Made by a program: the position numbers and the translations under genes. The notes beneath the pieces were generated by a model, which did not search any database, was not told the origin of the DNA, and saw only the letters and a program-made list of their open reading frames with translations. Shown here piece by piece: positions 32,052 to 57,918 of a stretch of DNA of 64,000 bases. Location: assembly GCA_037043015.1 (NCBI GenBank), contig CM073321.1, positions 38,832,420 through 38,896,419 of the forward strand, read 5' to 3'. Position 1 is the stretch's first letter. The number at the start of each line of letters is the position of its first letter. The stretch comes from Bryum argenteum (Eukaryota; Streptophyta; Bryopsida; Bryales; Bryaceae).

Positions 32052-35030
32052 TCACAAACTCCTAACTACGGACTTTTGTCTCCGTTCCAAGAAGTCCTTG
32101 CCTCGAAGAAGGGAGAAGTTATGGTCGTCTTCCACAACGCGTAGTACTGGAGAGGCAACCATAGGATGTAGCGTGCCATGCCGAATCTCTACCTTGAGTG
32201 CGCGTATGCAACCAACAACCTGGTTTAGGTTGGCCACCAGATGCTCCATCAACACGGGGTTCCCAATGACCTCATCGTGCAATGAAACTATCAGCTGCCG
32301 GAGTGATTCGGCTACAATGCGGACAACAGGTTTCCTCTTGACTGCAGTCTGCTTCGACTCGGAGACCAGAGATGGAACAGGGCACGGTGTATCCTCGTCT
32401 GTCACGGTGAGTAATATACGACCTATACCTCCTTGGGCATTACCTGCCTGGCGACTGCAAAATCTGGCAATTGTTCCCTCTGCAATATCGGGGCGTATCA
32501 TCAACAAAAGCTTAACCAAATGCTTGCAAATATTACCTCGCTGAGCGCACATGCAATTGCAACCGGCCCACTCTTTGGCGGGATTATGAACCACGTACCA
32601 AGTGTCACGATTGCTCTGCGATGTCACGAGTGCATAGTTCCCAAGGAATTGATCCAAAGAAACATCGGAGTCAGGAATGTTGCGTGCCCTAACAAGCGCA
32701 GATACGACAACATCCTGCATTTTCTTGTTGTCCACGAAACCCATCTCTTTTCGCAATCGCTTATACCAGGATTGGTCGTAGACCTCTTCCATGAGCGTGG
32801 TGATACTCCAATTGACGCGGCAACCAACTATCCGACTTCTTTCGGACTTAAGCACAATTTTAAGAAATCCGTGGTACCCTTCTATAGCCGCATTAGTGCC
32901 TTGGCCAGCGTAGAGTAAGTTTCTGTACCCTACCAACCACATGTGGACCTTCTTCAACCACTGGACGTTCATAAACTCCCAAAACTCGACCTCCATGGAA
33001 TACTTGCGACTAACGTCGTCAATCCTTGTAGCTGCCCAGGTTTAGGAGCCGGGTCCTCATGGCGAGTTACGGTCATACATCATTTGACCAATGTCACGTA
33101 AAATCGCAACACGTGTGTGCGCATCCTTGATTTGTAACATGAATATTTTTGCCAAGCACGCCGGACATGCCAAAGGGATAAGGAATATTGGGACCGTGGG
33201 CCAGATCATATTGTACACAACACAAACCACTCGTTGTGAGTGGCAAATACGATATGTGACTCTAATCAGCAATAAAATGAGGACACAATCAGAACCACCT
33301 CATGTGGTCAACTCACTTTAAAGCATTGATCTCGCTTTGAGCGCAGTCCACGATGAATGCAAAAGGCTCCCAACTGGAATTAGCCGTCCCCATCCGGACA
33401 TTCACGGCCCGCATCCATGAAGTGAGGTCTGTCTCAATACACCTCGACGTGAGTATCCAAGCCACCGGAATCCCTTGCTGCCACTTGTCACATGATTGTG
33501 TACAACAAGACCAGCGAGGAAAAAAAGATATGCATTAGCGAACTGTAACACTGACACACTATAACACCAAGACATGAAAGGTAATTAAGATAAATTTAGT
33601 CCTATAACAATAACTTTGGAGTAAAGCCACCTACAAATGGTAGCAAGATCGAGTAAGCAAGTCAAAAGCAGAATGCAGCCACATCCCAATCACAACAGAT
33701 GGCATTGAGGAATGATAGACTCCAAGAAGGCACGATGACTACGTACTTTTTTTTCATTTGTCCCGAATGTGGCGTCTATGGACACACCACCTCCGTGACC
33801 ATACTTAATCATCATCTCTTTCTGCCACGAAGTTTGTATACCAATGGTAAACGGCATGTTGACTCTTGTCAAGCTGCCCTACATAGCCTCCGGATTAGAC
33901 AAATCTGTCTCACTGTAATGGAAGACCTTGTCCATGTTTTTTTGGACCCAAATGCGTACACTCTGAGCGTCATTTGAATGCAACATCCACGTCTCCTTGG
34001 CATGCTTCCGTACAATGTTTCAAACGTCCTTCGGGCTAATAAGTGTTGAAGATTAGATTGCTTGTAGTTACTAAGGAAAACTAGAGTTTATTAGAGTATG
34101 TGGAGAGGGTTGGATGAATAGAGTCTTATCGTGTATGGAGAGGGCTTGTCCACAAGAGCCTTATTGTGTGTAGAGAAGGATGGACCACTAGAGCCTTATC
34201 CTATGTAGAGAGAGAAGGTTCTCTAGTGGTCTATCCTTTGTAGAGTGATCTTGATCACTCAAACCTTATCTTTGTTGTAGCACCTAGTGCCTTCACTTGG
34301 ATATGCAAGTTAGTGCTTGGAATGAGTGAGTATCTCATTCAAGCATTCTTTGCTCTACTACTTGTAAGCTTTGAGTGTGTTGTATTCTCTCTCTCCCTCT
34401 ATTGAATCTCAATAATAAGAATGTCACAAGTGATAACCTTTCCATCTGCCTCCTAGGAGCTTAAGAACTTAAAATGTTTCTTCATTATGTGGTGAACAGT
34501 GTAGTTCTCACGCAAGCAATGATCTACAAAATTGATTATCACCGGCGATAAGTGAGCCAATAACGCTCTACGGTCACCAAGTTTCACTCCACTGTGAACC
34601 ACCAAACCATTATTGTTCACATGCTGATCCTGAAGGACACACAACTCAGCAATGCGCGGTGCATGTAAAAGGATCTTAATCGTAAACCGAGCCTAACATC
34701 CCCGCTTTATAGACATGCCCCACTTCTTCCTCGAGTCCCTTGTCTTGACCCCAGCAGAGCCCCCAGGTACACGTACCTTTCCACCGGTGACAGTGGGAGA
34801 TTCGGATGTGGTACCTGGAATATCATTTAGAAACCAGTCTGCGTCCCTGGATCCACTATGTAACACCAACACACGCCTGATGCAACACTCCCGAAAACAA
34901 TATAACAGAGGTTGTGATAGTAGAATGCCATACAAAACATTTCGTAATATTCGATGAGATGAAAATACCTGCGTTCGCCTCATTGTTAGGCGAGGTGGCA
35001 GTGGGGAGCAAAGTGACACTTAGCTTTTAA
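32052..35030 (-). pseudogene. FAR1/MULE-like transposase with SWIM finger, decayed
   Basis: Ordered domains, reading leftward. A basic N-terminal DNA-binding part (KWGMSIKRGC..ARFTIKILL, then LVVHSGVKLGDRRALLAHLS) lies at about 34.4-34.8 kb. A DDE core follows: first Asp in GGGVSIDATFGTNEKK (about 33,770), second in FIVDCAQSEINAL (about 33,340), Glu in GTNAAIEGYHGFLK (about 32,890). A SWIM finger CNCMCAQRGNICKH lies near 32,540 in a 314-codon open C-terminal frame. The layout matches FAR1/MULE-type transposases, which cut and paste their DNA. There are in-frame stops near 34,695 and 34,001 and frame changes around 33.1-33.3 kb. A solo LTR interrupts it at 34,044-34,414. It is not functional as it stands, and its own terminal repeats were not found. 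Confidence 0.75.
34044..34414. mobile_element. Solo LTR of an LTR retrotransposon inside the MULE-like gene
   Basis: A 371-bp noncoding block starts TGTTGAAG and ends CAATA, and sits between two copies of the 5-bp target duplication ATAAG (34,039-34,043 and 34,415-34,419). It holds short reiterated phrases such as GAGCCTTAT and TGTAGAGA. Only one LTR is left, as after recombination between the two ends. TGTTG at one end is typical of Ty1/copia-type LTRs, but the family cannot be fixed without internal sequence. The intact target duplication argues for moderate age. Confidence 0.75.
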
Positions 35031-35699: not shown

Positions 35700-38612
35700 G
35701 CAGAGCACAAGTAAATGAGGTGGAGTTCGAGGGCTTTACCAAGGACCCCTTCTCTGTCGGCCACGCGCCTCGTCCTTCTTCAACACTGGTCTGTAAGATC
35801 TGCAAAGAACCTCCCATTTGTGTTGCTCTATGCCCTTCTAAAATATTTTACGTATTCGGAGAGGAGAGTCAATAGCAGGCGTGTGTGCATATCGGTACCC
35901 ACAAACATCCTGTCAAGGTCGGAGACTATAGATGTGCACGTAAAATAATTGATGGGTTGATAGAGGAGCACGTACAACGTAACCTACAAGCTACCACGTC
36001 CAAAATAGTCATGGAGGCAAGCAAGGACTTACTCGGAAACTTACTTCTCCGTCAAGAAGGTGACCCTGTAACCTCCAAGCTCACCCTGCAAGAGCTAGAA
36101 CCTATCTTCGATCAGTGTAAGGAGCTTAACTCTCCAAGCGTTAGGAATCGTATTACTACTTTCAAGCACTTGCACAGATACGGTGTTCTTGATGGGATCA
36201 CCAAGCTTTGAGGCCTCAACAACTGGACTTACATCCAACGTAACCAGTTCTCGGGCCAAGGAGATGAAAGTGACAAAGTTTTCATTTCCAAGATGTCCGA
36301 GGTCGGCCCCGGAAGCGATGTTGACCTTGTTCGTCGTATGCAACCCCGAGGCGTCCTGTCCCACGCGTAGATGATGTTCGACCACATCAAGCGTGTCAAG
36401 AACTGAACCACCATGGCGTGCCACATTTATGACTCAAAAATCTGCCGGATTCTAACTATTGCATGATGTGATTTCCAATTTGAAGACGGAGAAGCTCAAA
36501 TCGTCTTCTAGAAGAACCTTAACCACGTCATGGGCAGGAACGAAGTGGAAGCGCCACAGTTTCAAGGGTTCATGGGTCACAGTGTGCAAGCCAACTGGAA
36601 CGCTGTGCGGATCATTTACGGCTCCGGAAACCCTAAAGTGCCCATGGAAGACCACGAACGGACTTGCTACTTCCATTGGACGCAATCCCTAGAGAAACAC
36701 ACCAAACAATACATCGTGCACGAGCTGCAGGATCAACATCCACATCTTTGTAAGCAATACAAAGATGTACGCACCATGGCTGAGGCGGAGACAAGATATT
36801 GGGCGATCCGAGAGTGATGGGCGTCGGCGCAGGCCACCTCCGAAGTTGGATTAGGTCACCTCGTACATTGGCTTGTATTTTGGCACTTCCAATACAAGCA
36901 GTGGGGTGGCTTCATGGAACTGGTGAGTCCGCAGCCACAGTAGCAATTATGTACACGTGCTTTTATGTCTAGTAAATCCGTAAAATATATTTACTTCTTT
37001 ATTATAGAATATTCTACTTTTTTGAACGTTTAATAACAACTATTTAAATTATTTAAAATTTTAAAACAAAATCTATCTTTAGATCAATCTTGCGGTGCCG
37101 CAAGTTTAACCCGCTCTAGATATCGTGATCAACTTCTTTCGTTTCTAAGTCAAATGTCTTTGCACCTTGCAGGAAAATAAATATTCTGCAGATGAGCTGG
37201 CTGAGATGCCTTCATGTAACCTTGCGGAATCTATCCATAACAAATGGTTGCAAGCGTCCGGCAATAAGGGTGGGGACTTGTACGTTGCAGCTGTTGATGA
37301 TTATGTTCGTGCTTTCCTCGAAGTAGTGGGTTACCACGACTTCAACGGAGGTGGCAAGGGTGGTAGTGGACCAACATCCGAAGAACTATTACTTCGTGTT
37401 GCCCACAAAGCTCAACAACCCGGCGATCCTCCGGGCCTCACAAAGGCAGTTTCTGACTATCTACGACCTGAAAAGATTTGTACCCGCGACGCCCACCTTA
37501 AAGGGGCTGAGGTGTTCGGATCTAAGAAACGTAAGGCTGATGTTCCGAGTGAAGCTGATGATGAAACGCATAGACCTGACATCGTGAGCTACTCACGTCC
37601 TCGAATTGGAAGAAGGGTGACTTCAGCCTGTGCTGAAAATCTGAGTACTATCCTTGAAGAGGATGAAGTTGAGGAGCCACCGACATTACCATCCACTTTT
37701 GCTGGACCTAGTATTGAACGTGTGACCGCTGTTCAGGAGACTAAAGTAGACGAGAGGTTGTGGCACATTGCCTGTTTGAGGGGAAATTCTGCCAAGGCTT
37801 GTTGGGGTATCATGCGAAAGAGTAAAAATAGATGTGACTCACGAATTATTCAGAAGGGGAAGGCGACAGCAGCTCCAACTTACACCGCAGTATGGCAGCG
37901 CCCACAAGATGGGCCAAAAAAAACTGATCAATTCTTTTTTTGTGCGGATGATATTGACAGGTGTGTGAAGGGTCATCGCCGCAAGGGGATCGAGCCATTC
38001 TCTCTAAGCCATGAAAGACCCCCTTTTCCATCAATATGGCCTGTTACGATAGGGACTAACCTCACACATGATGAAATGGAGGCGTTAGAGAATGCTGGCT
38101 TTCGACTACCACACTAAAAACAACTTCCTATAAATTGCAGTTTCAATAATGCTGCCACACCGAGAGACTTGTCGCATATTCCAGTCTCGGAGGAGCCGGG
38201 CGTGTTCCCTACGGCAAGGAGATCGAAGAACATGAAACGCATTCCAGCTATGACTTCAAAGCACATGAAGAATATTGAGTCTGCCACCTCAATGCAGGCG
38301 AGAATTTTGAAGGTGACCATGATCTCGCAGCCTGGTTTTGGGTGTATCGTAGACTTGGAGTCGGATTTGGGTGCAGTTTATAGACTTTCAACTAGTACAT
38401 TCCCGGATTGCTCATGCCTGGCGATGACGAAAACAATTTTTGCGTTAGGACGAAGAGATCCATACCGACCGTGCAAGCACCTATACTTCATGACGGTATT
38501 GGTTTGCAAATTTGATCCGGATGCTGGCCTCTTCATCCACGCGGCCACTCTTAGTTTCAATGAGGTGAAGAAGATTCTCGAGGGAGGAATCCTAGACCAT
38601 GCTACAGATTAG
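35700..38612 (+). pseudogene. SWIM-finger transposase family X, copy A, decayed
   Basis: From the left: a Cys/His module of WRKY/GCM1-like layout (EPPICVALCPSKIF..ACVHIGTHKHPVKVGD). Then a conserved helical block (LGNLLLRQEGDPVTS), a core with MMFDHIKRVKN and GFMGHSVQANWNAVRIIYGS, then HERTCYFHWTQSLEKHTKQ. After an AT-rich intron-like gap the frame 37,167-38,117 is open (CNLAESIHNKWLQASGNKGG, WHIACLRGN, FFFCADDIDRCVKG). The 3' part carries a SWIM finger (CSCLAMTK..PCKHLYF). Several in-frame stops lie between 36.2 and 36.9 kb. Copy B (54,533-57,918) has Asp in FMADSAQANW where copy A has His, so a probable catalytic residue is lost here. The family is MULE-like by its DDE spacing and SWIM finger. 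Confidence 0.65.
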
Positions 38613-39806: not shown

Positions 39807-40724
39807 TTGCAGGCACATAACAATATCAAACTTTGTGATCCTTACCATGTTCATGGCATTAAAGAGTATTGGGAATTTGCAGCAAAGGTATCCAACCATG
39901 CAGTGACACGACCAGATTTAGTCAAAGTGGAGCATCAGAACAAGTTGCTTGCCGTGAGGATTGTGCATCCAGGTGTTATTCGTGTTACCGCCATTCATTT
40001 AAATAAGTACCAAGGCTATACGTATTGATGGAATGGCGGGACAATTCAAGAGATGTTGGCCCTTGATGCACGGTATGAAGATGATGTTTGTGAACATTTC
40101 GCACTCACAGAGCACTCCGATAATGAGCTTACTTGAGTTTGGCAGTTGGTTCGGTTTCGCCAAAAACGAACTGAGCTTGTTTGGGCTCTAGTGCATATCA
40201 TGAGTGAGGTCCACAAGAGGAACAACCTCCACAACGATGTGTCACCAGACAACATACTTCTTCACTTCTCTCAAGATGAATCACAAGTCTACACTGGTGT
40301 ATGCAATTGGGGCTTAACGACGAGCATGGATAAAAAAATGAGGTCCTTGTACACGTTCACGAAATCTGAAGATAGAATCGATACTCTACAAGCACGATAT
40401 TGGGTGGATCCTCGGATGGCGTACTTGTACAAAGAGAGTAATGACATTGACATTATTCCCTTCTATGAAAGAGCTTCAGAGGAGTTTGTTACGGCACGGA
40501 TAGCACAACAAATCCTCAAGAAGACCATGTCCACAGCCTACGAGAATTTGCAACATACAATAGGGCCTGACCGGTGGTCAAATCAAGACTTTGCAAATAC
40601 TTTTGATCAATACATGGAGATGGTGGGAGAAAAAGAGTTTATGTTGATCCACGTTGTCAACCGCTTCATGGAATCACACCATTGGCCGGTGCCCAATGAG
40701 CACTTTTGCACCAAGTACGAATAG
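39807..40724 (+). pseudogene. Protein-kinase-like gene with atypical catalytic motifs, decayed
   Basis: A single frame, interrupted by two TGA codons (40,026-40,028 and 40,132-40,134). The N-lobe-like part reads VKVEHQNKLLAVRIVHPG and, after the first TGA, WNGGTIQEMLALDA, like a kinase hinge. The catalytic-loop equivalent is NLHNDVSPDNILLHF (about 40,224-40,268), where HND replaces HRD and the Asn is kept. The DFG equivalent is GVCNWGL, with Asn where Asp binds magnesium. The C-lobe-like rest (YWVDPRMAYLYKE, SEEFVTARIAQQI) reads cleanly to the stop. The upstream part before 39,807 may be an exon. Similar HND..SPDN proteins occur, as far as I recall, as uncharacterised repeats in seedless plants. 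Both stops fit CGA-to-TGA change. The role is unknown and the setting is transposon-rich. Confidence 0.65.
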
Positions 40725-43448: not shown

Positions 43449-46400
43449 TTATGGCGTATCAGAGTCTGACTCTGCTGCATTTAGGTCCAAATATTGCCTA
43501 ACCCGACTATGTATACGAGGTGGTGGAGTCATTCCATCACTAGAATCAGATCTGACACTCGCAAACGCTTGAGCCAGGGATGCTGCATAGCTTGGGAGCT
43601 GGAACGAAGGCGATGGGGTTTGAAATGTGGACTTAAATCCCCGCTTTCTCGATATGAATGTCAGACTCATTAAATTGCAAATAACACAAGTTCAATGAGT
43701 ATTCAGAATCACTAAGCTATGAAATTTACAGACTTCAAGAAAACTTACTTACAGCAAGATTCGAATGGCGCATCTGAAATAGGTGAATCTTCCATATCTG
43801 GTATCAATGCTCGTTGTAGAGATTCTAGTGTGTCGGACAGCGCAGCTTGAAGAGGAATGAGAATCTCCTCGAAAAGCTTGGAGTCACTCTCCATTGCAAA
43901 GATGTTGCGATTGAGAGTCATTGCAGCAATTACGGAGGATCCTGCAATAGAAGAACGTCGCTAAACATCAGTCCTTTGAATACAACATATAGGATAAAGT
44001 AGATTCAAGTATAGTAATCTTACCAACTCCAGTTTTGAAGTCCACAATTGTGCCATTCTCAGGGCAAATTCCGTGAATTAAGGCTTTCAAAAGAAGCGTA
44101 GACTTCTGCTTTGCACCTCGCCAAGGTCGCCCATCCAACTTTCTCGCACACAATGTCATCTACTCCGTGAAGGTTGAACAACATATTGTCATTGCTGAGA
44201 TCAACATCGGTACATACGATCGGGGTTAATCTCAAGTGGCTTTGGCTGCCTAGAGACCTTCTTGTCGAGAGAGTGGACAAGTAGAATAACTTTGAACATG
44301 TTTGTCTGGAATACGATATTTCAAGTTAATATACGAAACAAATAAGATGTAAACGCTTCAACAGAATTTGAGATCGACTAAAAACTTACTGTTTTTGATT
44401 TGTTAATGTGACTGGCAAGAGGTAACGTTTGAAACACGTTCCATTCGTCAAACACCTTTAGCTTGAAATTCTTGAAGTAAGTCATGATTTCCTTTTTTAT
44501 CGTCAAAGAGTCCGGGTAGAAGAGCAGTATCACCGCATCGTCATGCACATACCTCGCTGAGTATTGCATGACACTCTTCAGGAAGGAAACGTCCTGCATG
44601 TTCCAGTTTGGAATTGCGTGTGGCGGATCGGAGACACCAGGCACGCGTAATCCGTCTGGATAATCTGCAATAATCAGATCAACAGCTTGAATGGGCTCTT
44701 TATCTGGCTTCATGAGCTTCCCATCCTTGTAAAATGTCCTCCCCTGCACCACCTGAATTCCATATTTGAAGTGTGAGTAACTTGAGTTGGAAACATGTTC
44801 AATGAGTTTGGCTTTGATGTAGTACCTCAGCTATGAAGTCTTTCATGTCGTCGTATTTTTTCGGGGAAATGGCTTCTTCATCGTACTCAACTCCATCCAA
44901 CGCACAATCGAATCGTTGACAATGAGGCACTTAGATGTTGATTTTGTCCGCACCTGCTGAGGATCGACCATCATTTGCACCATGGAGCTTGGACAATGCT
45001 GCATTACGGGGGCAGGTGACTCGCTACGGGCGTGCTTCGGCCGTCTCTGCCTTGAGGACTCTCCAGGCAAGTAGGCAGGCGTCACACAACGTGGACGCTC
45101 TGCTGGGGCGACCTCATGATCATCGTCTAGATCGTCGATCAGAAGCCTTCGTTGGCGGCGGTCTACGAATGGCAAGTTGGCCTCTTCAACTTGAGACTCC
45201 GGTGGCTGGGATCCAAGTACCAATTGGCTTTGAGTAAGATCTCCCTCCTGAAGTGCAGCTCTTGTCCTTGGGTTGCCAGTGGTAGTGCTGCAGCCATAGC
45301 AGATGACGGTATTGCAAATAACGGAGCCGGAGTTTGCACATCGGGCTGACACTCGTCCTTTCTAAGGCTCTTCTTTGATTTCTTGGAGTTCACTGCCGCT
45401 GGTGGAGTGGTATCGTCGACTTTATCCAAGTCCACCACGTCCTTGCTGATGTTTGAGAAGCCAGGTTCAATGCTGTTGAGTTGATCCACCTCTCAACTAA
45501 GACACTTGTTCCTCTGGCAGTCCAAGTACCAACCACAAAAATCAAAATGTTGACGCCCATATATGGTCTGAATTGCAATTCTGTACATGCATTTGTCTTG
45601 AGTTGGATCATTCCAATTCTCAAAATACATGGGAAGCTTCGGCACAGCTTTCGCTGCAAGCAAGACGTGCTTGAAGTAGCGGTATAACACTCGACGAGTT
45701 GCCTCCATGAAACCAAGCTGGTCCTCCGGTTGGTAGCCCTTGTAGATGCCGACTGAGTTCGCGTCTTTGGGATCCACCTTCGGGCGGAATTCTCGGTAGA
45801 ATGCCGGAACCCATAGTCTGCAGCGCATTTGTTCAACGTAGTCCTGGATTTGCATGATTCGGTCTCGCCCCTCTCGTTCATAATCGACGTCCACCCTCAA
45901 TGCCTTGAGAGCACCAACTACTTGGGTTTGACAATCTTCCAAAAGCTGCAAGAAAAGGAAAAGCGACGTTTCATAAGAAGCTTGACATTCCAAAGGTTCA
46001 AATTCAATTGGGCACCGACATTTACCTGTACCCAGAAAGTAGCTTTGTTCAAGAAGGAATTGAATTGCTCATCGGAGGACTTTCGTTTTGGGAATTTGAA
46101 TTCCTCCCTAGACTTTGGGTTCCAGTTCCATATGTCCAACCAGGTGAGCTTGGAGTTGATGTCCATTGCAGAGGTTGCAAATACGTACAGCTTCTCGATG
46201 AGCATCACGAGTAGATGGAAGGTCTCGTAATGCTCCTTCACCTTCTCGATGAACTTACCTTCGTACTTCTCATCACAAATGGGAAGAAGCTTCTTCAGCT
46301 CCCGTTCTAAAGTACCTCTCTTGGCTGTTACATGTTTGTGGATGTATTCGTTAATCCCGTGTCCTGTCATTCGTCCCTATTTGGAAACATCTTCTCAAAT

Positions 46401-47691
46401 TTTTTTGCTGCAGTATCAGCAGCCTCAGATATCTCACTCTGCATTACACCAGAAAGGTGTATTAGAAGCGTTATAAAAGTGTATACTGGGAGGGACTCAT
46501 ATGTGATAACTAACCTGGTAAAGGAAGTTTGTAAGCCCAGGAACCATAAGCGAGAACCAAGTCCGAACACTTTTGGTCTCAGCTTTGATATAATCAGCCT
46601 CTGACACCAAGCCCTTGAAATATTCAAGAGGCTTCTTTCCAACTGCATACAGTCGATATAACTTATGCACAAAATTCTCCTTCACATGGCTGTTTTGATT
46701 GCGTCTGAAAATCCATTCAACGGCAAGCAATAAATGAGAAAACGGATTGACCTTAATTTCAAACTTAAATGGTTGAAAGGATTATGGGGGTATAAACTTA
46801 CTGATTTATATCATACAACATGGTAAGCGTGTCCATAACTCTACCCTTGACGTCAAGAATGATACAATCAACGGAGAAATGCCACTCAATGTCATGAGCG
46901 TGCTTTCTGTTGATGATTGGTAGCCAAGCCTGCAACCGGTGATTGCCATCCCAAACATTAAACATTTTGTTCGAGAACTATTGCAAAACTCGATCACGTT
47001 TCAATTTCGATTCGAACTCATCGTTAACAGCACGCCAATGGTCGCTTCATGACAGCATGTCCTCCTCAGTCACGTCATGGGAGTTGGCGTTGTCGTCTTC
47101 TCATGCAAGGTAGAAGACAGTCGCGCCTTCAATGTATCCTCCATTGACAAATCGACTTTGAAAAAGTTCGATATAATTATTCATTGCTGGTCTTACAGCT
47201 GTCAGTCCCTTCAGCCTGCAAAGAGGAATGTTTGGACGTGAATTTTGTTTGGGCTTCAAACGAAGCGCGTCTTTTTGGGATCCAGCGTGAACAACCTCCT
47301 GGCTTACAAGACTGTCTAATCTCTCCTCAACCTCAGCCTCTGTTAAGGGAATGCTATCGTGATCCACCAAACTCTCCTCAGATGGTTGGGGTCCTTCATC
47401 GAGATGTCCACCCTCAACCACGATCTGTGCAAAAGAGCGCCACTCTTCAGCAGGCCGTCCACCATCAAGCACGCTATGCTTATGTGAGCGCGACTCTTCA
47501 ACAGGCCTTTCTGATTCAACGACGCTCTTCTCATAGGGACCTTTGCCCTTATCCAGCCTCGAAGTCAATGTCATTTGCGCCACTCGATCAGCAACGTCCA
47601 CGGCATTTGTATGCGTTGATTGAGTTGCAGGTCGTTTCTGAGGTGCCGGTGTAGAGAAGGTTGTGTTCGTCAAAGCCGACTCCCCTTCCAT
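43449..47691 (-). pseudogene. ParB-like domain fused to a DNA amino-methyltransferase (beta-class order), decayed
   Basis: Reading leftward: a disordered N-terminus from MEGESALTNTTFSTPAPQ (47,691); a ParB/sulfiredoxin-like region (RPNIPLCRLKGLTAVRP..YIELFQSRFVNGGY) whose key motif is NVWDGNHRLQAWLP (about 46,950); a helical middle (HVKENFVHKLYRL, NSVGIYKGYQPEDQLGFMEA, YGRQHFDFCGWYLDC); VQMMVDPQQVRTKS; a methyltransferase core with AVDLIIADYPDGLRVPG at the motif IV position (about 44,640); PWRGAKQKSTLLLKALI; and motif I split by an intron, TIVDFKTGVG then GSSVIAAMTLNRNIFAMESD. Motif IV before X and I is the order of beta-class N6A/N4C enzymes. GT-AG introns are clear, for example at 44,024/43,943. 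Three in-frame stops lie between 46,978 and 47,100, and frame changes near 44.9 and 44.13 kb. ADYPDG departs from the usual DPPY or SPPY. I recall full-length uncharacterised relatives in seedless plants. Confidence 0.7.
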
Positions 47692-47768: not shown

Positions 47769-48560
47769 TTATCCTATATCATAGTCTGCCTTCATATGAT
47801 GGAGCTCATTCAAGCGAGGGCAGACATAGGGAGCTGCTTCATTAGGTGATTGATAATTCTTGGGCGCAATGTCGACGTTGGGGTTTGAGGTAGTCGTCTC
47901 GGCTTGCTGTGACTTCACTGGCGAAGAGCGCCTTTGGGCTAAGGTCGGGGCAGGTAAGGGCGCCAAGACCCTGTCAGGCACTTGACCTTGTCCATCCTTG
48001 CCTTTGACGGCTGTGAGGCTCCGGCAATTTAAGGCTCCATTGGGCACCCGACCCCACCACGCCAGCCGCGATGGGGAGTCGCAATGCGACCAACAATAGC
48101 GCTTGGGTCGGGGTAGGTGAGTGCGACGGGACCCCATCGGGCACCGGACCCTCCTCCGGACGGCTCCAGCGCTCGAACCTCGGCCTCTGACGTCGAGGCG
48201 CCGCCGTGCGCCGGGACCCCATCGGGCACCGGACCCTCCTCCGGACAGCTCCAGCGCTCGAATTCCGGCCTCTGACGTCGAGCCGCCGCCGTGGGGCAAG
48301 TGCGGGTTTCGTGACTCCATCGGCCGCTCGACCCCCACCTGACTGGAATGCAGCCGTCAACCAGCCCACGCTGCACCCACGCGCTCCACTAAATTGGCCG
48401 CCTGATCCCTTCCATCGCAACGAATCGAATAGAAATACCCCATTGGGAACCCGATGGGCTTTTAGGTTGCCATTGGGTGTTGTGACGGGCGCTGCTGCTG
48501 TGTCGATGTGCGGTGCGCGAATCATCCACTATACCCCATCGGTGACCCGATGCAGTGTTT
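47769..48560. repeat. GC-rich repeat block with CCCCATCGGGCACC words
   Basis: The words CCATTGGGCACCCGA, CCCCATCGGGCACCGG (twice), CCCCATTGGGAACCCGATGG and CCCCATCGGTGACCCGATG recur at about 48,036, 48,133, 48,218, 48,440 and 48,534, and related words at 52,547 and, inverted, at 53,080. All three minus frames are open for 115-189 codons through it because the repeat is stop-poor. I do not call these genes. The left part (47,769-47,950) reads a Ser/Thr/Asn-rich chain on the minus strand that could be an upstream exon of the ParB/methyltransferase gene. Confidence 0.5.
48120..48290. repeat. 85-bp tandem repeat, two copies
   Basis: Two adjacent copies run from GTGCGACGGGACCCCATCGG to the CGCCGCC end (48,120-48,204 and 48,205-48,290), differing at a few bases. 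A third diverged copy lies at about 52,528-52,612 across the LTR element. Confidence 0.85.
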
Positions 48561-48644: not shown

Positions 48645-48715
48645 AGAACTTGCTTGGTGATTCAGCAGTCGGTCCATCAGGGTCAATATATAGTCCTGAG
48701 CACCTGGTTGCTGTA
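48645..48715 (-). pseudogene. Degraded second copy of an MMS19-like exon segment
   Basis: About 27 bp on the minus strand (GACTATATATTGACCCTGAT plus GGACCGA) match the MMS19-like exon at about 48,990-49,030 (GACTTTATATTGACCTGGAT plus GGACCGA) with three differences. Weaker similarity continues past it. In the matching frame it reads LYIDPDGPTAES against LYIDLDGPIPEC. This suggests a duplicated and decayed exon, too short to be certain. Confidence 0.35.
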
Positions 48716-48931
48716 ATCGAAAATGCATCGAACGAGTCAGTAGCATAAACTATCATAAATTTTGAGCTGAAGCAAAATTATACTAGAAACAACATTGCGA
48801 TGTAGGGAATTCTTTCAGTCGCACTCGCCAACTTCCTTAGCTCGTAAATTAAACGCATGACACGACATTTGCTAAATCTGCTCATTTAAGAAAACAGGAG
48901 ACTGCAAAAAAAAGCTGAGATAAGTACTCAC

Positions 48932-49648
48932 GGGTTTAAAAGATATCGGAAAGTATCTGCGGACAAAGTCAAAGAGTTCATCGGCACATTCAGGAATCGG
49001 TCCATCCAGGTCAATATAAAGTCTACTCAATGGTTGTATGAGCCGGAAAGCTAACAATAAGCAGCGACGATCTTTCTCTTCTTCAATAGCCGCAACAACA
49101 CCAAATATAAGGTCGCCTTCTTGCATCCTAGACTCTATGAGCACACTAAAAAGTCGGCACGATAGACATTGCGAGACCCACAAAAAATGACGAATCTCCA
49201 CACCAGTAACAAATTTTCACAAAGGAATCTTCGTACCAGTGGCGCCACGGCATCTGCATGCTTCTCCGGTGGACATTCTAATAGCTCCATACAAAGCTCT
49301 CCAAAGTGCGGATGATCAGACATCACCTGGTGAGAGTTACATCGTACGAGTACCTAAACTGAACCTTCAACTCGTAAATAGAGCATCAAGAGCCATCAAT
49401 GGATTCTCAGGACTAACAAACAGCCTTGAACGTCTTGATAACTCACCTCTAAGTTACAATGAATAAAAGGTTGTGCATGTAAGGATTACCTTGCGGTCAC
49501 GTTGAGCAAGAGTCTGAACGTGAGGATTCACTAATGCGGATTTTGCCACTGCACTAGCTTCCGCCACTTGCTCAGCTCCCACTTCTGGGCTCCTTCTTAG
49601 TAGAGTAAAGGAGCCAAGGACCGCACCTCGCAAACAGTGCCAGTCACC
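48932..49648 (-). pseudogene. MMS19: MMS19-like gene fragment, three clean exons
   Basis: Exons 49,648-49,490 (53 codons), 49,326-49,237 (30 codons) and 49,132-48,932 (67 codons) are each bounded by AG and GT, all in phase 0, and read GDWHCLRGAVLGSFTLLRRS..HVQTLAQRDRK, FGELCMELLECPPEKHADAV and GDLIFGVVAAIEEEKDRRCL..ADELFDFVRRYFPI. This is the N-terminal HEAT-repeat part of MMS19, the adaptor that hands Fe-S clusters to DNA-repair and replication enzymes. The usual protein has about 1,000 residues or more; only about 150 are here. Neither the start nor the long C-terminal part is nearby. It lies between the GC-rich repeat block and an LTR element, so a captured or relocated fragment is likelier than a working gene. 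The clean exons suggest recent origin. Confidence 0.8.
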
Positions 49649-49802
49649 CTGAGCCAAACATAGAAACGATCAGTTATATCCTCCACATCCTTCATCGAAT
49701 ATAAACGTATACCGATTGCAGATGTCTCAAACCTGCTAGACCCTTTCCAAGCTTTTCGGATAAAATCAGCCACTAAGATCTCATCCCCTTTGCGAGCTAT
49801 GA

Positions 49803-51734
49803 AGAAGCTCTCTTAAATGAGTGATCACAACAGCATTTCAGGTTCTAGGGAACAATGATTCGGTTCATATGGATGAGAACGAGCAGTAGAAACTCGCAAG
49901 TCGTGCGCTAAAGAAGTCGATAAGACTCTAGATAGCTGTATCTTCAAGAGGTTTTCCCGATAAATCGACAAGTATGTCCACTTCATATGAGTTTTGATCT
50001 GCGATGCTCAAGTAAGCATACATATGAGAAGCTGGCCAGATTTAGTGACAAAGTAGCTGATACAATAGTGTCATGGGCCAAGGCCTCGTTGATAAGCTCG
50101 GATGTTCACTCGCTATTAATTTTATAAATAGAACTTCGGCAGTAGAGCTAAAGTATAGCTTCGGCAGTAGAGCTAAAGTATAGCCTCGGCAGTAGAGCTA
50201 AAGTATAGCCTCGGCAGTTGAGCCAAGAGGTTAGTCTATAAGGGACTCTTATTCATTGTAAACCTAAGTCTTGGATCAATATATTTCATTTTGCTCTTCG
50301 AACCTCTTCGGACGCGTTTGATCCAATCTACTCATGATTCACCACTAGCAGGACATCCAGGTCGTGAGGGTACGCGTGACTTGATTGCACGTGAATATAC
50401 GTGGCTGGGTTGACACAAGATGTTCGGAGATTTGTGCGGGCGCAACGTGTGTGGAAAATCGAAGATTTGGCGGGAGCAGAAGCAAGGGTTGCTAAAACCT
50501 TTGCCAATTCCGGCACGGATTTGGACTGAGCTCTCCATTGATTTTATTACCGGATTGGCACCAAGCGCCGATCGCACAAATATCATGGTTGTGACAGACC
50601 GTTTGTCCAAATCTATCATTCTTTGTGCCTATGAAGACAATTCGTGCACTTGATGTGGCTCACAAACTTTTAGAGCAAGTTTTTCAGCATCACGGATTGC
50701 CTGCAGCAATTGCGTCGGATCGTAGTAGTCAATTTGTTAGTCCGCTTTGGGATGAAGTATGCAGATTGATGAAGATTACGCGTCGGTTGTCGACAGCTTT
50801 CCATCCGGAGACAGATGGTGCAACAGAGAGGGCGAATCAAGAGCTTGAAACATATCTTCATATTTTCACGACATTTGAGCAAGAAGATTGGGCTTTTCAG
50901 TTGCCGATCGCGATGATGGCGTTGAATAATCGTGTGTCGCGATCTATAGGTATATCCGCATTTTTATGACTCACGGTTATCATCATTCGGTCATAAATAT
51001 TACTATACCCGAGGAGGCAGGTTCTTCGTTGTCACCTGCGGAAAAAGGACGCAAGCTTGTTGAGCACTGGCGTAATTCAAGTGAACTAGCAACAACGGCA
51101 ATGGCCATTGCGCAAGAGACTCAAGAACGTCAGTCAAATACACGACGCTCGGTGGCCAAGGATTTTCGTCCGGGTGATCGTGTGTGGTTGAAGTTGAAGA
51201 ACATCAACACGTCCCGGCCAATCAAGAAGCTCTCTTAAATGAGTGATCACAACAGCATTTCAGGTTCTAGGGAACAATGATTCGGTTCATATGGATGAGA
51301 ACGAGCAGTAGAAACTCGCAAGTCGTGCGCTAAAGAAGTCGATAAGACTCTAGATAGCTGTATCTTCAAGAGGTTTTCCCGATAAATCGACAAGTATGTC
51401 CACTTCATATGAGTTTTGATCTGCGATGCTCAAGTAAGCATACATATGAGAAGCTGGCCAGATTTAGTGACAAAGTAGCTGATACAATAGTGTCATGGGC
51501 CAAGGCCTCGTTGATAAGCTCGGATGTTCACTCGCTATTAATTTTATAAATAGAACTTCGGCAGTAGAGCTAAAGTATAGCTTCGGCAGTAGAGCTAAAG
51601 TATAGCCTCGGCAGTAGAGCTAAAGTATAGCCTCGGCAGTAGAGCTAAAGTATAGCCTCGGCAGTTGAGCCAAGAGGTTAGTATATAAGGGACTCTTATT
51701 CATTGTAAACCTAAGTCTTGGATCAATATATTTC
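49803..51734 (+). mobile_element. Ty3/gypsy LTR retrotransposon remnant with both LTRs
   Basis: Two nearly identical direct repeats of about 490-510 bp (49,803-50,287 and 51,224-51,734) flank a short internal part. Only the integrase region is recognisable: a His-containing N-terminal segment (HDSPLAGHPGREG), the core (DFITGLAPSADRT, VVTDRLSKSI, HHGLPAAIASDRSSQFVS, HPETDGATERANQELE) and a C-terminal segment ending DRVWLKLKNINTSRPIKK. The rest of the usual coding set is absent, so the element is broken and could have moved only with help. The LTRs differ mainly by one 26-bp unit, so insertion looks recent. It splits the MMS19-like fragment from the ING2-like exon. Confidence 0.85.
50134..50236. 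repeat. 26-bp tandem units inside the left LTR
   Basis: Units of the form CTTCGGCAGTAGAGCTAAAG plus TATAGC, about three full copies and a diverged last one. The matching array in the right LTR (about 51,556-51,675) has one more unit. The unit-number difference is the main contrast between the two LTRs. Confidence 0.85.
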
Positions 51735-51798
51735 TTTTTGTAGTTTTTGCTTGTTTTGACAGCTAGACTCTTACAAATAGCTAGTTGTGTGAACCCAC

Positions 51799-52233: not shown

Positions 52234-52624
52234 TCACTTACCAGGCTCTGAATCGTGAGTCCGCCATGTAATAACTCCTTTACGATCGCTATTGCACTGC
52301 GCGTCTGTGATCCAATTGAACGCACTAAAATTCATGATTGCAACAATTGGAATTGAATCTTCAAATACATTGAATGAATGGTATTTTTGGCACCTGTTCA
52401 GCAGCGGGACGTTGTTTGTATCTGTACGATTTAATAATCGATTTTGAGCCATCGAAGCGGCCATCGCTTGCTTCAGCCATCGCTGCGGCCATCTCCTTGA
52501 TCTCGGCCGCGCTTGGGTCGGGGTATTTGAGTGCACCGGGACCCCATCCGGCACCGGACCCTCGTCCGACCGCGGCTCCAACGCTCGGCCCCTGGCGTCG
52601 AGGTTGAAGGCACAATCTTAGCAC
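52234..52624. repeat. Third copy of the 85-bp GC-rich unit, in a short unplaced coding-like region
   Basis: At 52,528-52,612 a diverged copy of the 48,120-48,290 unit lies in the same orientation. On the minus strand the flanking sequence is open in two frames (AAEIKEMAAAMAEASDGRFD; ITDAQCNSDRKGVITWRTHD), the second ending at a good donor (GAGCCTG/GTAAGT, about 52,240). No family was recognised. It could be a 5' exon of the ING2-like fragment or unrelated. Confidence 0.4.
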
Positions 52625-54532: not shown

Positions 54533-57500
54533 TTGTTTTTGAAATCAATACATTTCTTATGGTTGCCTACTATGGCAACAATTCGTGTGGAGGGTGGTCG
54601 AGCCCCCCTGAGGGTATCACCTCAATTTGACGTAAGAATTGCTGTCAATGCTACAATGCTCGCCTTGAAGTTTGATTTTAAACTAGACTCTATCTTTCTG
54701 GAGGAAGAGGTTTATGATGATTCAGGTGCGCTTCTTTACACTGATATTGTCATATGTAGTGCAAACTTAGAAGGTGGTGTTTGGAGCTTAAAGCCCACTA
54801 CGTACTGCATCATTGGTGAGCACATAGGAGTGATCCATCGCGCATAATTACAGACTGCGACACTTGATGCAATAGTCTTATGCTCTAAGTCAGATGCCAC
54901 TGCACCTCTCACTCATGTCATCGAACCCTCAAAGTCCGAGTTCATAAGTCTAGAAGACTCTGATGTTGAGTCAGCTTTAGGCCACACAAAATTGAGAAAC
55001 GGTCTAGGTCCTAGTGTTTGTCCACCACTAAGTAGTTCTGCTTCCCAGAAACCGCCATTGTCACCAGTGCCTGCCTCACCAGTTAGTTCTATAGCTTGCA
55101 TTCACAAACTCCAGTTTCGCAAAGGAGCCAAGAGTGAACTTAGCAAAGTAGACCTAGATTCTTTCCAACATTCGTTCGTTCACTGGTTGCTTCCAGAATA
55201 CAATGGAAACCACGGATTTGAGTTCCCTCCACCCCCAAGTGATGTTAAGTCCGGCCATGCTAGAAAGCTGTACGGGATGGACAAACCTCATGACGGCCAT
55301 GTTTGGTGCCATTCTATTACTCGCAATATTCAAAATGACTTTTAGATTAAGTTTCCGTTCTGCTCACTGTGCTTGCCACCTTCGCTGTGAAAATCCGAGC
55401 TGTCCATTTCTATTTCTCAAAGGCCATGCTGATAGTGTCAATGAAACGAAATCGGTTGGTCATGTGAAGGGACAATTCCTTGGCAAGACCCCACCATTGA
55501 ATTCAAAGTTGGTGTGTGCAATTCGTAAGGAGCCACCTATTTGCGTGAAGCTTTGTCATGCTCTTATGTACTGGGTTACGGGTGGAGTTACAACTACCCG
55601 TGCTTGTATACATATTGGGCATCATGATCACCCAGTTGGAAGAGGTGAATGCAGGGAATCTCGTGTCTTACGAGATCGTCTGATTTCAAAAGCCGTCAAG
55701 TGGACTCCAAAAGCGTCACCATCTTCTATAACGATGTCAGCAAGTTTGGAGTTCCTTGGCAACTTGCTACTGGACGAGGATGGAGAACCAATTGTTCAGA
55801 TGACGAATACGGAGATGCAAGACGTTATGCACAAGTTCGAGAGCTTTACCAGTCCGACCATTCGCCACAATATCTCTCAGTTCAAACGAATGGGGAAGCT
55901 AGGTGTGATTCATGGTGTATGCGAACTCAGGGGGACAACTCGCTAGCCATTTGTCCAAGAGAATAGATTTCCGGGCCATGGAAAGGACATGCACTGACAA
56001 AGTTTTTGTTTTCAAGATGTCTGAGATTGGACCTGGATCAGGCGTCAACCTCGTTCGACGCATGCAATCCGGAAATCTGAAGGACTCATGGATCATGTTT
56101 GATCATGTTAAACGCATCAAACATTACACTACGTTTGCCTGTCATGTTTACGACTCAAACTACGCCAAGGTGATGACAATTGCTATTTGCGACATGCAAT
56201 CTAAGACTAAGGACGCACAATCCTACCTTTGGAGGATGCTTAACGAAGTTATGGCGCATCATGGTGTCGTCAACGTCAATTTCAAAGGTTTCATGGCTGA
56301 CAGCGCTCAAGCCAACTGGAACGCTGTTCGAGAGATTTACGGTGCTGGAGACAAGACTGTGCCCATGAAAGAAAAGGAGAGATCGTGTCTACTTTACTCG
56401 ACAAAATGCATGCACAGAGTAACAAACTTATACGTAACCCGGTGCTCTGCGAAGAGCATAAGCGAATTTTCACACAATATAAGGATGCAATCAATATGGA
56501 CGAGGCCGAGACACGCTACCTTGCAATTTGGTCGTGGTGGGTGTCAAGTGAAGGTGTAAATTTGCCAGCCATGGAGTCCAGGCTGGCGTGGTGGCATTTT
56601 CGTTACAGGCAATGGGGAGGCTTCATGAATCTTGTATGCGTGCTTTAACTTTTGTTTTTGTGATATGCTTAAATAATTCTCTCGAGGTACCATCCACCAG
56701 GGCACTTTCCATTCTTCTCATATCTTTACTCTGTAGACATGCCTCCCTTGTGCCGCCACTCCCATACTTCATTTTCCTACACGATCCACATATTCTTGTA
56801 CTCGGATTTGTTTAGATTTACGTAGTAGTTGGTTTTCCATTTCGAAGTTCCAACAGTCGAAATGACCTAATTTGACTTTGTGCAGGAACTTACTGATGAA
56901 GAGAAAGCTGAAATGCCAATGTGCAATTTGGCTACAACCATCCACGGTGCGTGGTCAAAACAGTCTGGTAAAGATGTTCATGATATTTTTGAAGCATCAG
57001 TGGACGATTTTGTCAAGGCATTCACGCAATGCACACGTTACAATGCTTTTCTACACGGTAAAAGCGGTGGTACAGGACCGGACAAGGAGGTAATGCGCTT
57101 CACGCTCGCAGGTCGAAGTAGGAATCTGAACACAATGTACAAAGCCATGGAAGCCATCCCCGGTGCTAAGGACTTCCTGGTTGTGGACCCTAATTATGCT
57201 GGCGAGGAAGTTTTTGGATCAAGTAAAAGGCGTTTGGAAACGCAACTTGGTGCTGATGACGATTCCCATCGTTTTGACAAGGTTAACTTCTCTCAGCCGA
57301 AGCACTCTAGAAGGAGAACACGCTCTCAGAGATCTCCTTCTACTCCTATTCAAATAGATGACGAAGATGCTGACGATATTCTAGCGGCTGTGCCAGTTCC
57401 AGCTACACCCATTGTCCATCTAACTGAAGTCCAAGAAGATGACTGTGAGAAAGGAAAATGGCATATCCGTCTTGTTCCTGCAAATAACAATCCGACTTGT

Positions 57501-57918
57501 ATTGGAAACCGGAGCGCGTCAAAACAATGCCAGCAGAAGATCATTGGGCCTGCACCTACATTCCATGGAACTCGTCACTATCGCTCAAAGAACCTCGACA
57601 TCAAGCAATTTTTCTACTTCTCTCCGGATGATCTGAATAGATGTGTTAAAGGCCCCCGCACAAGGGGGATTAAGGATCTAACTCCTGATGTCCCAACGGT
57701 TTGGCCTGTTCAAAAAGGAACAAATCTAACTATGCGTGAGGTCTTGGCACTTTAACAAGCGGGATTCCAGCTACAACAAAAACGACCAATGCCGATGGAG
57801 CGTCAGTTTGGATATAACGTTGCCATTGCGGATCAAATTGAAAGCATCCCGATCCCAACACAACCAGATAAGTACATGACGGTGCGCAACGGCAACGGTG
57901 CACAACGGCTTTCACTTC
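54533..57918 (+). pseudogene. SWIM-type transposase family X, copy B, better preserved
   Basis: N-terminal block MATIRVEGGRAPLRVSPQFD, a Ser/Pro-rich linker, then the Cys/His module (CHLRCENPSCPFLFLKGH, EPPICVKLCHALMY, ACIHIGHHDHPVGRGECRES). The likely DDE core follows: WIMFDHVKRIKHYTTFACHV, GFMADSAQANWNAVREIYGA and KERSCLLYSTKCM. Its last part lies in the frame at 56,385-56,648 (YRQWGGFMNLV). After an intron ending about 56,884 the C-terminal exon is open for 291 codons (CNLATTIHGAWSKQSGKD, WHIRLVPANNN, FFYFSPDDLNRCVKGPRTRG). Frame changes fall near 55.33, 55.93 and 56.39 kb; some may be introns. Past 57,755 the text is weak and the SWIM finger seen in copy A at 38.4 kb is missing, so the 3' end is probably truncated. 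A Mutator-like cut-and-paste transposase is the likely role. Confidence 0.65.

What the first reader, a model, noticed from the sequence alone, without database searches (positions are those of the whole stretch)
43449..47691. A eukaryotic ParB-like plus DNA amino-methyltransferase fusion gene
One minus-strand, intron-containing gene joins a DGNHR-type ParB/sulfiredoxin-like region to a methyltransferase with motifs in the order IV, X, I. In bacteria and phages, ParB-type domains fused to N6A/N4C methyltransferases are well known. In plants this architecture is, to my knowledge, not described functionally, although I recall uncharacterised relatives in seedless plants. N6 or N4 DNA methylation by a repeat-borne enzyme would be a new epigenetic player. 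This copy is decayed, but the family may have intact members.
Basis: partly seen in the sequence, partly recalled or inferred. Interest (0 to 1): 0.88.

Follow-up and report, generated by a model that had tools for sequence, protein, structure and literature searches.

The report
Broken plant gene for DNA methyltransferase
In what looks like a plant's nuclear DNA lies a broken, intron-bearing gene whose end part comes from a bacterial- or phage-type DNA-methylating enzyme and whose front part may resemble a ParB-type domain; this copy cannot work as an enzyme, but working relatives, if any exist, could write an unusual DNA mark.

Summary
A minus-strand spliced gene (47691-43449) has at least six GT-AG introns of 73-97 nt; the three junctions tested restore the frame. 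Its C-terminal part descends from a beta-class DNA amino-methyltransferase, motif order IV, X, I: Pfam N6_N4_Mtase E 2.4e-5 (24.8 bits, under the curated 26.7), PHROG 5.8e-8, PADLOC 1.8e-7. A scan of 1,615 window frames ranked its exons first and second with two phage profiles; shuffles scored far lower. The ParB half is weaker: DGNHRLQAW is present, but no library gives a ParB match, ParB profiles fail, and only a DGQHR-type profile (seed chosen by eye) ranks it first, at E 0.15. So: a ParB-like motif, domain unproven; kinship to phage ParB-methylases is not shown for that half. This copy is dead: four premature stops, about five frameshifts, and no DPPY/SPPY (DYPD, or less likely DPPH, at motif IV). 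The motif may have been lost before the frame decayed. No relative was found in the collections searched; no plant genomes could be searched. Repeat-borne origin and an epigenetic role remain unshown.

The parts
46802..47691 (-). Exon 1: N-terminal low-complexity part, the stretch before DGNHR and the DGNHR motif; three in-frame stops
46924..46950 (-). DGNHRLQAW, ParB/DGxHR-like motif
   Evidence: best of 1,615 ORFs with a DGQHR-type profile at E 0.15; 1 of 60 shuffled windows reached that score
46515..46704 (-). Exon 2: continues the DGNHR region
   Evidence: frame stays open across intron 1
46026..46438 (-). Exon 3: middle region, helical by eye, one frame change
   Evidence: no family match that I would credit
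44826..45945 (-). Exon 4: rest of the middle region and a low-complexity linker; one premature stop and about two frame changes
44390..44752 (-). Exon 5: methyltransferase half with the motif IV region, open over 121 codons
   Evidence: in the top-ranked of 1,615 ORFs with the phage ParB-methylase profile, E 0.1
44654..44665 (-). Motif IV position by the ParB-methylase profile: DYPD instead of DPPY/SPPY
   Evidence: the solo-methylase profile leaves DYPD and DPPH as two insignificant choices
44618..44629 (-). Alternative motif IV position: DPPH, 12 residues downstream
44024..44305 (-). Exon 6: motif X (KQKS at 44100-44111) and first part of motif I (DFKTGV); about two frame changes
   Evidence: top of 1,615 ORFs with the solo beta-class profile, E 0.019
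43759..43941 (-). Exon 7: rest of motif I and the following strand (GSSVIAAMTLNRNIFAMESD)
   Evidence: frame stays open across intron 6; second hit with both profiles
43449..43691 (-). C-terminal tail with the natural stop; its splice border was not fixed

Best explanation
This is a pseudogene of a plant nuclear gene. Its C-terminal half comes from a bacterial- or phage-type beta-class amino-methyltransferase (N4-cytosine or N6-adenine) and carries short spliceosomal introns. Its N-terminal half has a DGNHR motif that may belong to a ParB/DGxHR-type nucleic-acid- or nucleotide-handling fold, followed by a middle region without known relatives. Inferred mechanism for an intact relative: the N-terminal and middle regions place the protein on DNA; the Rossmann domain binds S-adenosylmethionine at motif I and methylates a base flipped into the motif IV pocket. 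This copy does none of that, because the frame is broken and motif IV is altered. Shown: gene structure, methyltransferase homology, motif order, decay. Inferred: SAM binding, DNA as substrate, targeting by the N-terminal region, the plant host, and the existence of intact relatives.
For: Pfam PF01555 2.4e-5; PHROG DNA methyltransferases 5.8e-8, 3.2e-6 and 4.1e-6; 11 of 11 PADLOC families hit are methyltransferases, best 1.8e-7. The window scan ranks the exons first and second with both profiles. The joined domain scores 22.3 and 30.9 bits against maxima of 4.3 and 4.5 among 2,000 shuffles. GT-AG introns, and frame kept at the three junctions tested, one of them inside motif I. SET, PHD-like, MMS19 and a weak integrase match nearby indicate eukaryotic nuclear DNA.
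Against: No DPPY/SPPY at motif IV. The Pfam score is just under the curated cut-off. Single-frame pieces alone are weak (E 0.019-0.3 window-wide); the strong scores come from a joined model whose frames I chose. The solo-methylase profile was seeded from a phage protein that had already matched the window's motif I region, so that scan is not fully blind; the ParB-methylase profile was not chosen that way. The ParB half lacks significant support. No relative was found.
Confidence: 0.68

Rival explanations
1. Pseudo-enzyme family: the methyltransferase fold was kept without its catalytic motif, as a DNA- or SAM-binding module, before this copy decayed.
For: The ParB-methylase profile puts DPPY on DYPD, inside an exon open over 121 codons; DPPY to DYPD needs at least three base changes. 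From four premature stops in 869 codons I estimate about 3% neutral change since decay, giving P about 0.015 (range 0.0004-0.14) for three changes in 15 bases.
Against: The placement is not certain: the solo-methylase profile offers DYPD (-1.9 bits) and DPPH (-1.7 bits), neither significant, and DPPH would be one change from DPPY. The rate estimate rests on four stops in part of the gene; its upper bound does not exclude plain decay.
Confidence: 0.22
2. The N-terminal region is not ParB-like at all; DGNHR is a chance string in an unrelated domain.
For: No ParB match in Pfam, PHROG, NCBIfam or PADLOC. Canonical ParB profile rank 15 and ParB-of-methylase profile rank 643 when run with 1,000 shuffles. 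Most bacterial frames with DGNHRxxAW look like chance frames.
Against: The DGQHR-type profile ranks the segment first in the window and aligns beyond the motif, though I picked its seed by eye for its likeness. A planctomycete protein (locus L013) that looks ParB-like and has DGNHRLEAW is also missed by Pfam, so a missing Pfam hit says little.
Confidence: 0.4
3. The gene is cargo of a mobile element or of an endogenised giant virus rather than a host gene.
For: Decayed element-like frames nearby (weak integrase and SWIM-like matches) and GC-rich tandem repeats just upstream. Endogenised giant-virus DNA in a moss is mentioned in PMC12344493 (passages). A 24-nt pair of inverted arms, 75% complementary, lies around the gene, but at about chance level.
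Against: No second copy in the window. No hit in IMG/VR for the three regions, though that search sees close relatives only. Spliceosomal introns are, from general knowledge, unusual for viral genes.
Confidence: 0.25
4. Bacterial contamination or a very recent bacterial insertion.
For: Bacterial-type methyltransferase.
Against: At least six GT-AG introns, three tested junctions keep the frame; eukaryotic genes elsewhere in the window.
Confidence: 0.02

Closest known systems
Phage and bacterial beta-class DNA amino-methyltransferases (PF01555; phrog_3008, phrog_67, phrog_498)
   Same: Motif order IV-X-I; motif X and I sequence
   Different: Spliced eukaryotic gene, long N-terminal extension, no DPPY/SPPY, broken frame
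Phage ParB-methylase fusions (bacterial example: locus L084/L094; 319 phage records match it, 275 of them over at least 80% of its length)
   Same: A motif of the GHxR/DGxHR kind upstream of a methyltransferase with order IV to I in one protein
   Different: Their ParB domain does not match the window's; the window model is about three times as long, with a middle region they lack
DUF6551/DGQHR-type proteins (PF20188)
   Same: NV-DG(Q/N)HR and the following segment align weakly
   Different: Match not significant alone (E 0.15); methyltransferase fusions of this type were not looked for
Bdelloid rotifer N4CMT (PMC8885841, passages read)
   Same: Bacterial amino-methyltransferase captured by a eukaryote
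   Different: N4CMT has SPPY, a chromodomain and measured 4mC activity; 'ParB' does not occur in that paper's text
Marchantia DN4MT1a/b (mentions in PMC8566409, PMC8885841, PMC12344493; the main paper was not found in the library)
   Same: 4mC methyltransferase of bacterial origin in a land plant
   Different: Described as having no added N- or C-terminal domains (PMC8885841 passage); kinship not testable here, no sequence at hand

Membership tests
Beta-class DNA amino-methyltransferase (N6_N4_Mtase) | Motif I (SAM binding) | tested here: met
   DFKTGVGSSVIAA across intron 6; Pfam, PHROG, PADLOC
Beta-class DNA amino-methyltransferase (N6_N4_Mtase) | Order IV, X, I | tested here: met
   the motif IV end is the weakest part
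Beta-class DNA amino-methyltransferase (N6_N4_Mtase) | Catalytic motif (D/N/S)PP(Y/F/W) | tested here: not met
   DYPD at 44654-44665, or DPPH at 44618-44629
Beta-class DNA amino-methyltransferase (N6_N4_Mtase) | Score over the curated Pfam cut-off | tested here: not met
   24.8 against 26.7 bits, E 2.4e-5
Beta-class DNA amino-methyltransferase (N6_N4_Mtase) | Methylates DNA | not testable with these tools
   needs an intact relative
ParB/sulfiredoxin superfamily | Profile match to ParB_N or relatives | tested here: inconclusive
   No ParB match in four libraries; DGQHR-type profile 8.3 bits, E 0.15, first of 1,615, 1 of 60 shuffled windows as high
ParB/sulfiredoxin superfamily | Fold | tested here: inconclusive
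   pLDDT 37.6 without relatives
Phage ParB-methylase fusion | ParB domain of that family | tested here: not met
   score -1.8 bits, rank 643 among 1,000 shuffles and itself
Phage ParB-methylase fusion | Methyltransferase domain of that family | tested here: met
   22.3 bits against a shuffle maximum of 4.3
Mobile element | Terminal repeats or several copies | tested here: inconclusive
   One copy in the window; only short imperfect inverted arms at about chance level; the genome is not held

The most novel reading that the evidence does not exclude
A plant gene family in which a DGNHR, ParB-like domain and a middle region of its own guide a captured beta-class amino-methyltransferase (or its catalytically altered descendant) to chosen DNA, writing or reading 4mC or 6mA. 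It would be a further eukaryotic capture of a prokaryotic amino-methyltransferase beside rotifer N4CMT, Marchantia DN4MT1 and the fungal 6mA case mentioned in PMC12344493, with its own targeting module.
Probability: 0.25. Interest if true: 0.85.

Novelty: new variant of a known kind. Interest (0 to 1): 0.5.

Why it matters
Few captures of prokaryotic DNA amino-methyltransferases by eukaryotes are named in the passages read: bdelloid rotifers, Marchantia, and early-branching fungi. A spliced plant relative with an added N-terminal module would make another case testable, and the altered motif IV asks whether such captures can become pseudo-enzymes. The present copy is only a fossil that points to a family.

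Tried and rejected
Searches without result: the window's own genome is not held. No relative of the methyltransferase (first joined version only), DGNHR or middle region in IMG/VR; those scans need exact eight-residue stretches and see close relatives only. Phages (14 records, 11 annotated as methylases; first version) and plasmids (7 records, 5 annotated as methyltransferases) gave only short matches around motifs X and I, and one irrelevant phage record for the DGNHR region. PDB sequences: chance hits on top, with DpnA methyltransferase at E 0.63-0.66 in the second try. Pattern DGNHRxxAW: 4 viral contigs, none shown to encode a relative (best E 0.019 over 12 residues); 36 genome loci, mostly chance frames by my reading, with a few ParB-like proteins such as L013, L017, L033, L040 and L046 (L036, L037 and L043 printed no frame). 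Structure prediction failed for lack of relatives, so no fold search was run. PF02195 and PF20188 searches served to gather yardsticks.

My first joined methyltransferase string used a wrong frame before motif I, and Pfam gave only 0.013; the profile scan showed the right frame and the E-value became 2.4e-5. Profiles: 79 of 80 ParB-methylase loci and 75 of 80 solo-methylase loci entered. The solo seed had been found by its match to the window. ParB yardsticks: 10 DGQHR loci, whose seed (L092) I picked by eye for its likeness; 24 of 45 loci kept by a motif filter and not checked one by one; 56 of 79 methylase ParB parts. In one search the program reported scores for 1,160 and 1,415 of 2,000 shuffles; those it did not report are taken as lower. 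The number of shuffles reported was not printed.

Rejected: contamination (introns); the label 'member of the phage ParB-methylase family' (its ParB domain was tested and not met).

Literature: ten searches showed no paper on a plant ParB-methyltransferase protein in their listings; some held thousands of papers of which 10-20 were listed, and many journals are not held, so this is weak evidence. Passages were read from PMC8885841, PMC3493329, PMC3671162, PMC5512222, PMC8566409, PMC12695648 and PMC12344493. The 'ParB' hits in PMC3493329 and PMC3671162 were a species abbreviation.

Full report
What is there. On the minus strand between 47691 and 43449 runs a gene-like series of long open frames. 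The eight longest frames of the sense strand sum to 1,256 codons, against a maximum of 796 in 500 shuffles; the antisense strand also exceeds the shuffles, with 832. At least six introns are read: I1 46801-46705 (97 nt; the script gave a wrong I1 donor) and I2-I6 of 73-84 nt, all GT-AG. At I1, I4 and I6 the joined exons keep one open frame through the junction, and I6 lies inside the SAM-binding motif, so the join itself completes DFKTGVGSSVIAA. I take this as good evidence for a real eukaryotic gene. I2, I3 and I5 were located but their joins were not tested by script.

The methyltransferase. The first joined version gave only a weak Pfam match (0.013), with better PHROG hits in the motif I region (best 1.7e-5). 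To avoid choosing frames by eye, I built two profiles: one from 79 phage ParB-methylases, one from 75 solo beta-class methylases. The second was seeded from a phage protein that had already matched the window at motif I; the first was reached through ParB searches and a bacterial genome. I scanned all 1,615 window frames of 25 aa or more. The first profile ranked the exon with the motif IV region first and the motif I exon second; the second ranked the motif X/I exon first and the motif I exon second. Single E-values are modest (0.019-0.3), but the hits fall on one strand, in order, within about one kilobase. In 60 shuffled windows no such same-strand pair appeared; 2 of 60 reached the single best score for the first profile and 0 of 60 for the second. 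With the frame so indicated, the joined domain scores 22.3 and 30.9 bits against shuffle maxima of 4.3 and 4.5, Pfam PF01555 2.4e-5 at 24.8 bits (cut-off 26.7), phrog_3008 5.8e-8, phrog_67 and phrog_498 over the stretch from the motif IV region through motif I, and PADLOC 1.8e-7 with 11 of 11 families being methyltransferases. NCBIfam gave nothing for the first version and was not repeated.

The catalytic motif. The ParB-methylase profile places DPPY on DYPD at 44654-44665. The solo-methylase profile offers two insignificant choices, DYPD (-1.9 bits) and DPPH 12 residues downstream (-1.7 bits). I prefer DYPD because it follows the run VDLIIAD, which looks like the expected strand; that is judgement. 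On either reading this copy lacks the defining (D/N/S)PP(Y/F/W). From four premature stops in 869 codons I estimate about 3% neutral change (range about 1-8.5%), which makes three changes in 15 bases unlikely but not excluded (P 0.015, range 0.0004-0.14). The loss may predate the decay, if DYPD is the right place.

The DGNHR half. DGNHRLQAW is at 46924-46950. No library gives a ParB match; the few hits are weak and of other kinds. Run with 1,000 shuffles, the region ranks 2nd with a small DGQHR-type profile, 15th with a canonical ParB profile and 643rd with the ParB part of phage ParB-methylases. Window-wide, the DGQHR-type profile puts this frame first at 8.3 bits, E 0.15; 1 of 60 shuffled windows reached 8.3. 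I had picked the seed of that profile by eye for its likeness, so these figures flatter it. A planctomycete protein with DGNHRLEAW and a ParB-like look, L013, is also missed by Pfam, so Pfam's silence is not decisive. Structure prediction had no relatives to work with and failed. I conclude: ParB-like motif, domain unproven.

Decay. Three premature stops in exon 1, one in exon 4, and about five frame changes (one in exon 3, two in exon 4, two in exon 6), counted by eye. The copy cannot make the protein.

Surroundings. SET (7e-8) and PHD-like (3.1e-6) matches and a weak integrase-core match (7.1e-4, below cut-off), and an MMS19_N match (1.1e-14) just upstream on the same strand, point to a eukaryotic nuclear genome with decayed elements. 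Plant is the likeliest reading, partly from recalled resemblance of the SET/PHD gene to plant trithorax-type genes. The species is unknown and its genome is not held. Whether the gene lies inside an MMS19 intron was not settled. No second copy lies in the window. Two pairs of short imperfect inverted repeats were listed around it, one spanning the gene; flank-to-flank pairs of that kind number 2 against a shuffle mean of 0.4, and 6 of 60 shuffles reach 2, so I do not credit them.

Relatives and literature. No relative in IMG/VR for the three regions (close relatives only). DGNHRxxAW in viral and prokaryotic genomes was mostly chance by my reading. Plant genomes could not be searched. Known captures of prokaryotic amino-methyltransferases, from passages: rotifer N4CMT (PMC8885841), Marchantia DN4MT1a/b (PMC8566409; PMC8885841), and a fungal 6mA case (PMC12344493). 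A ParB-adenine methylase of Bacillus cereus whose ParB domain has nicking activity is cited in PMC5512222 (passages).

Verdict. A real, decayed, spliced gene derived from a beta-class DNA methyltransferase; ParB fusion plausible but unproven; epigenetic role untestable from this copy.

Noticed in passing
12387-14805, minus strand: SET domain (7e-8) and PHD-like zinc finger (3.1e-6) frames, probably of a trithorax-type histone methyltransferase gene.
   Followed up: partly
48660-49669, minus strand: MMS19 N-terminal match (48875-49216, 1.1e-14) just upstream of the finding, further MMS19-like frames by eye up to 49669, and a 36-nt piece at 48660 that is 86% like one at 48988. The rest of MMS19 was not seen by eye among the frames listed.
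   Followed up: partly
49799-50293 and 51221-51740: Near-identical direct repeats 1,422 bases apart, each with 25-bp tandem units, around a weak integrase-like frame; perhaps a short LTR-element remnant.
   Followed up: no
36512-38609 and 54848-57752, plus strand: Two series of decayed ORFs that share an 88-nt stretch at 76%, transposase-like by eye; a SWIM-like frame also at 32055-33041 (E 0.053).
   Followed up: no
40137-40721, plus strand: Weak protein-kinase-like frame (E 0.0039, below cut-off) on the far side of the finding.
   Followed up: no
48121-48293 and 52509-52603: GC-rich 85-bp tandem repeat just upstream of the finding, with a further copy at 52.5 kb.
   Followed up: no
L013 3740-5077: Planctomycete ParB-like protein with DGNHRLEAW that no Pfam model detects in the stretch tested; 5 of 294 genomes of its phylum hold a match, its own genome included.
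   Followed up: partly
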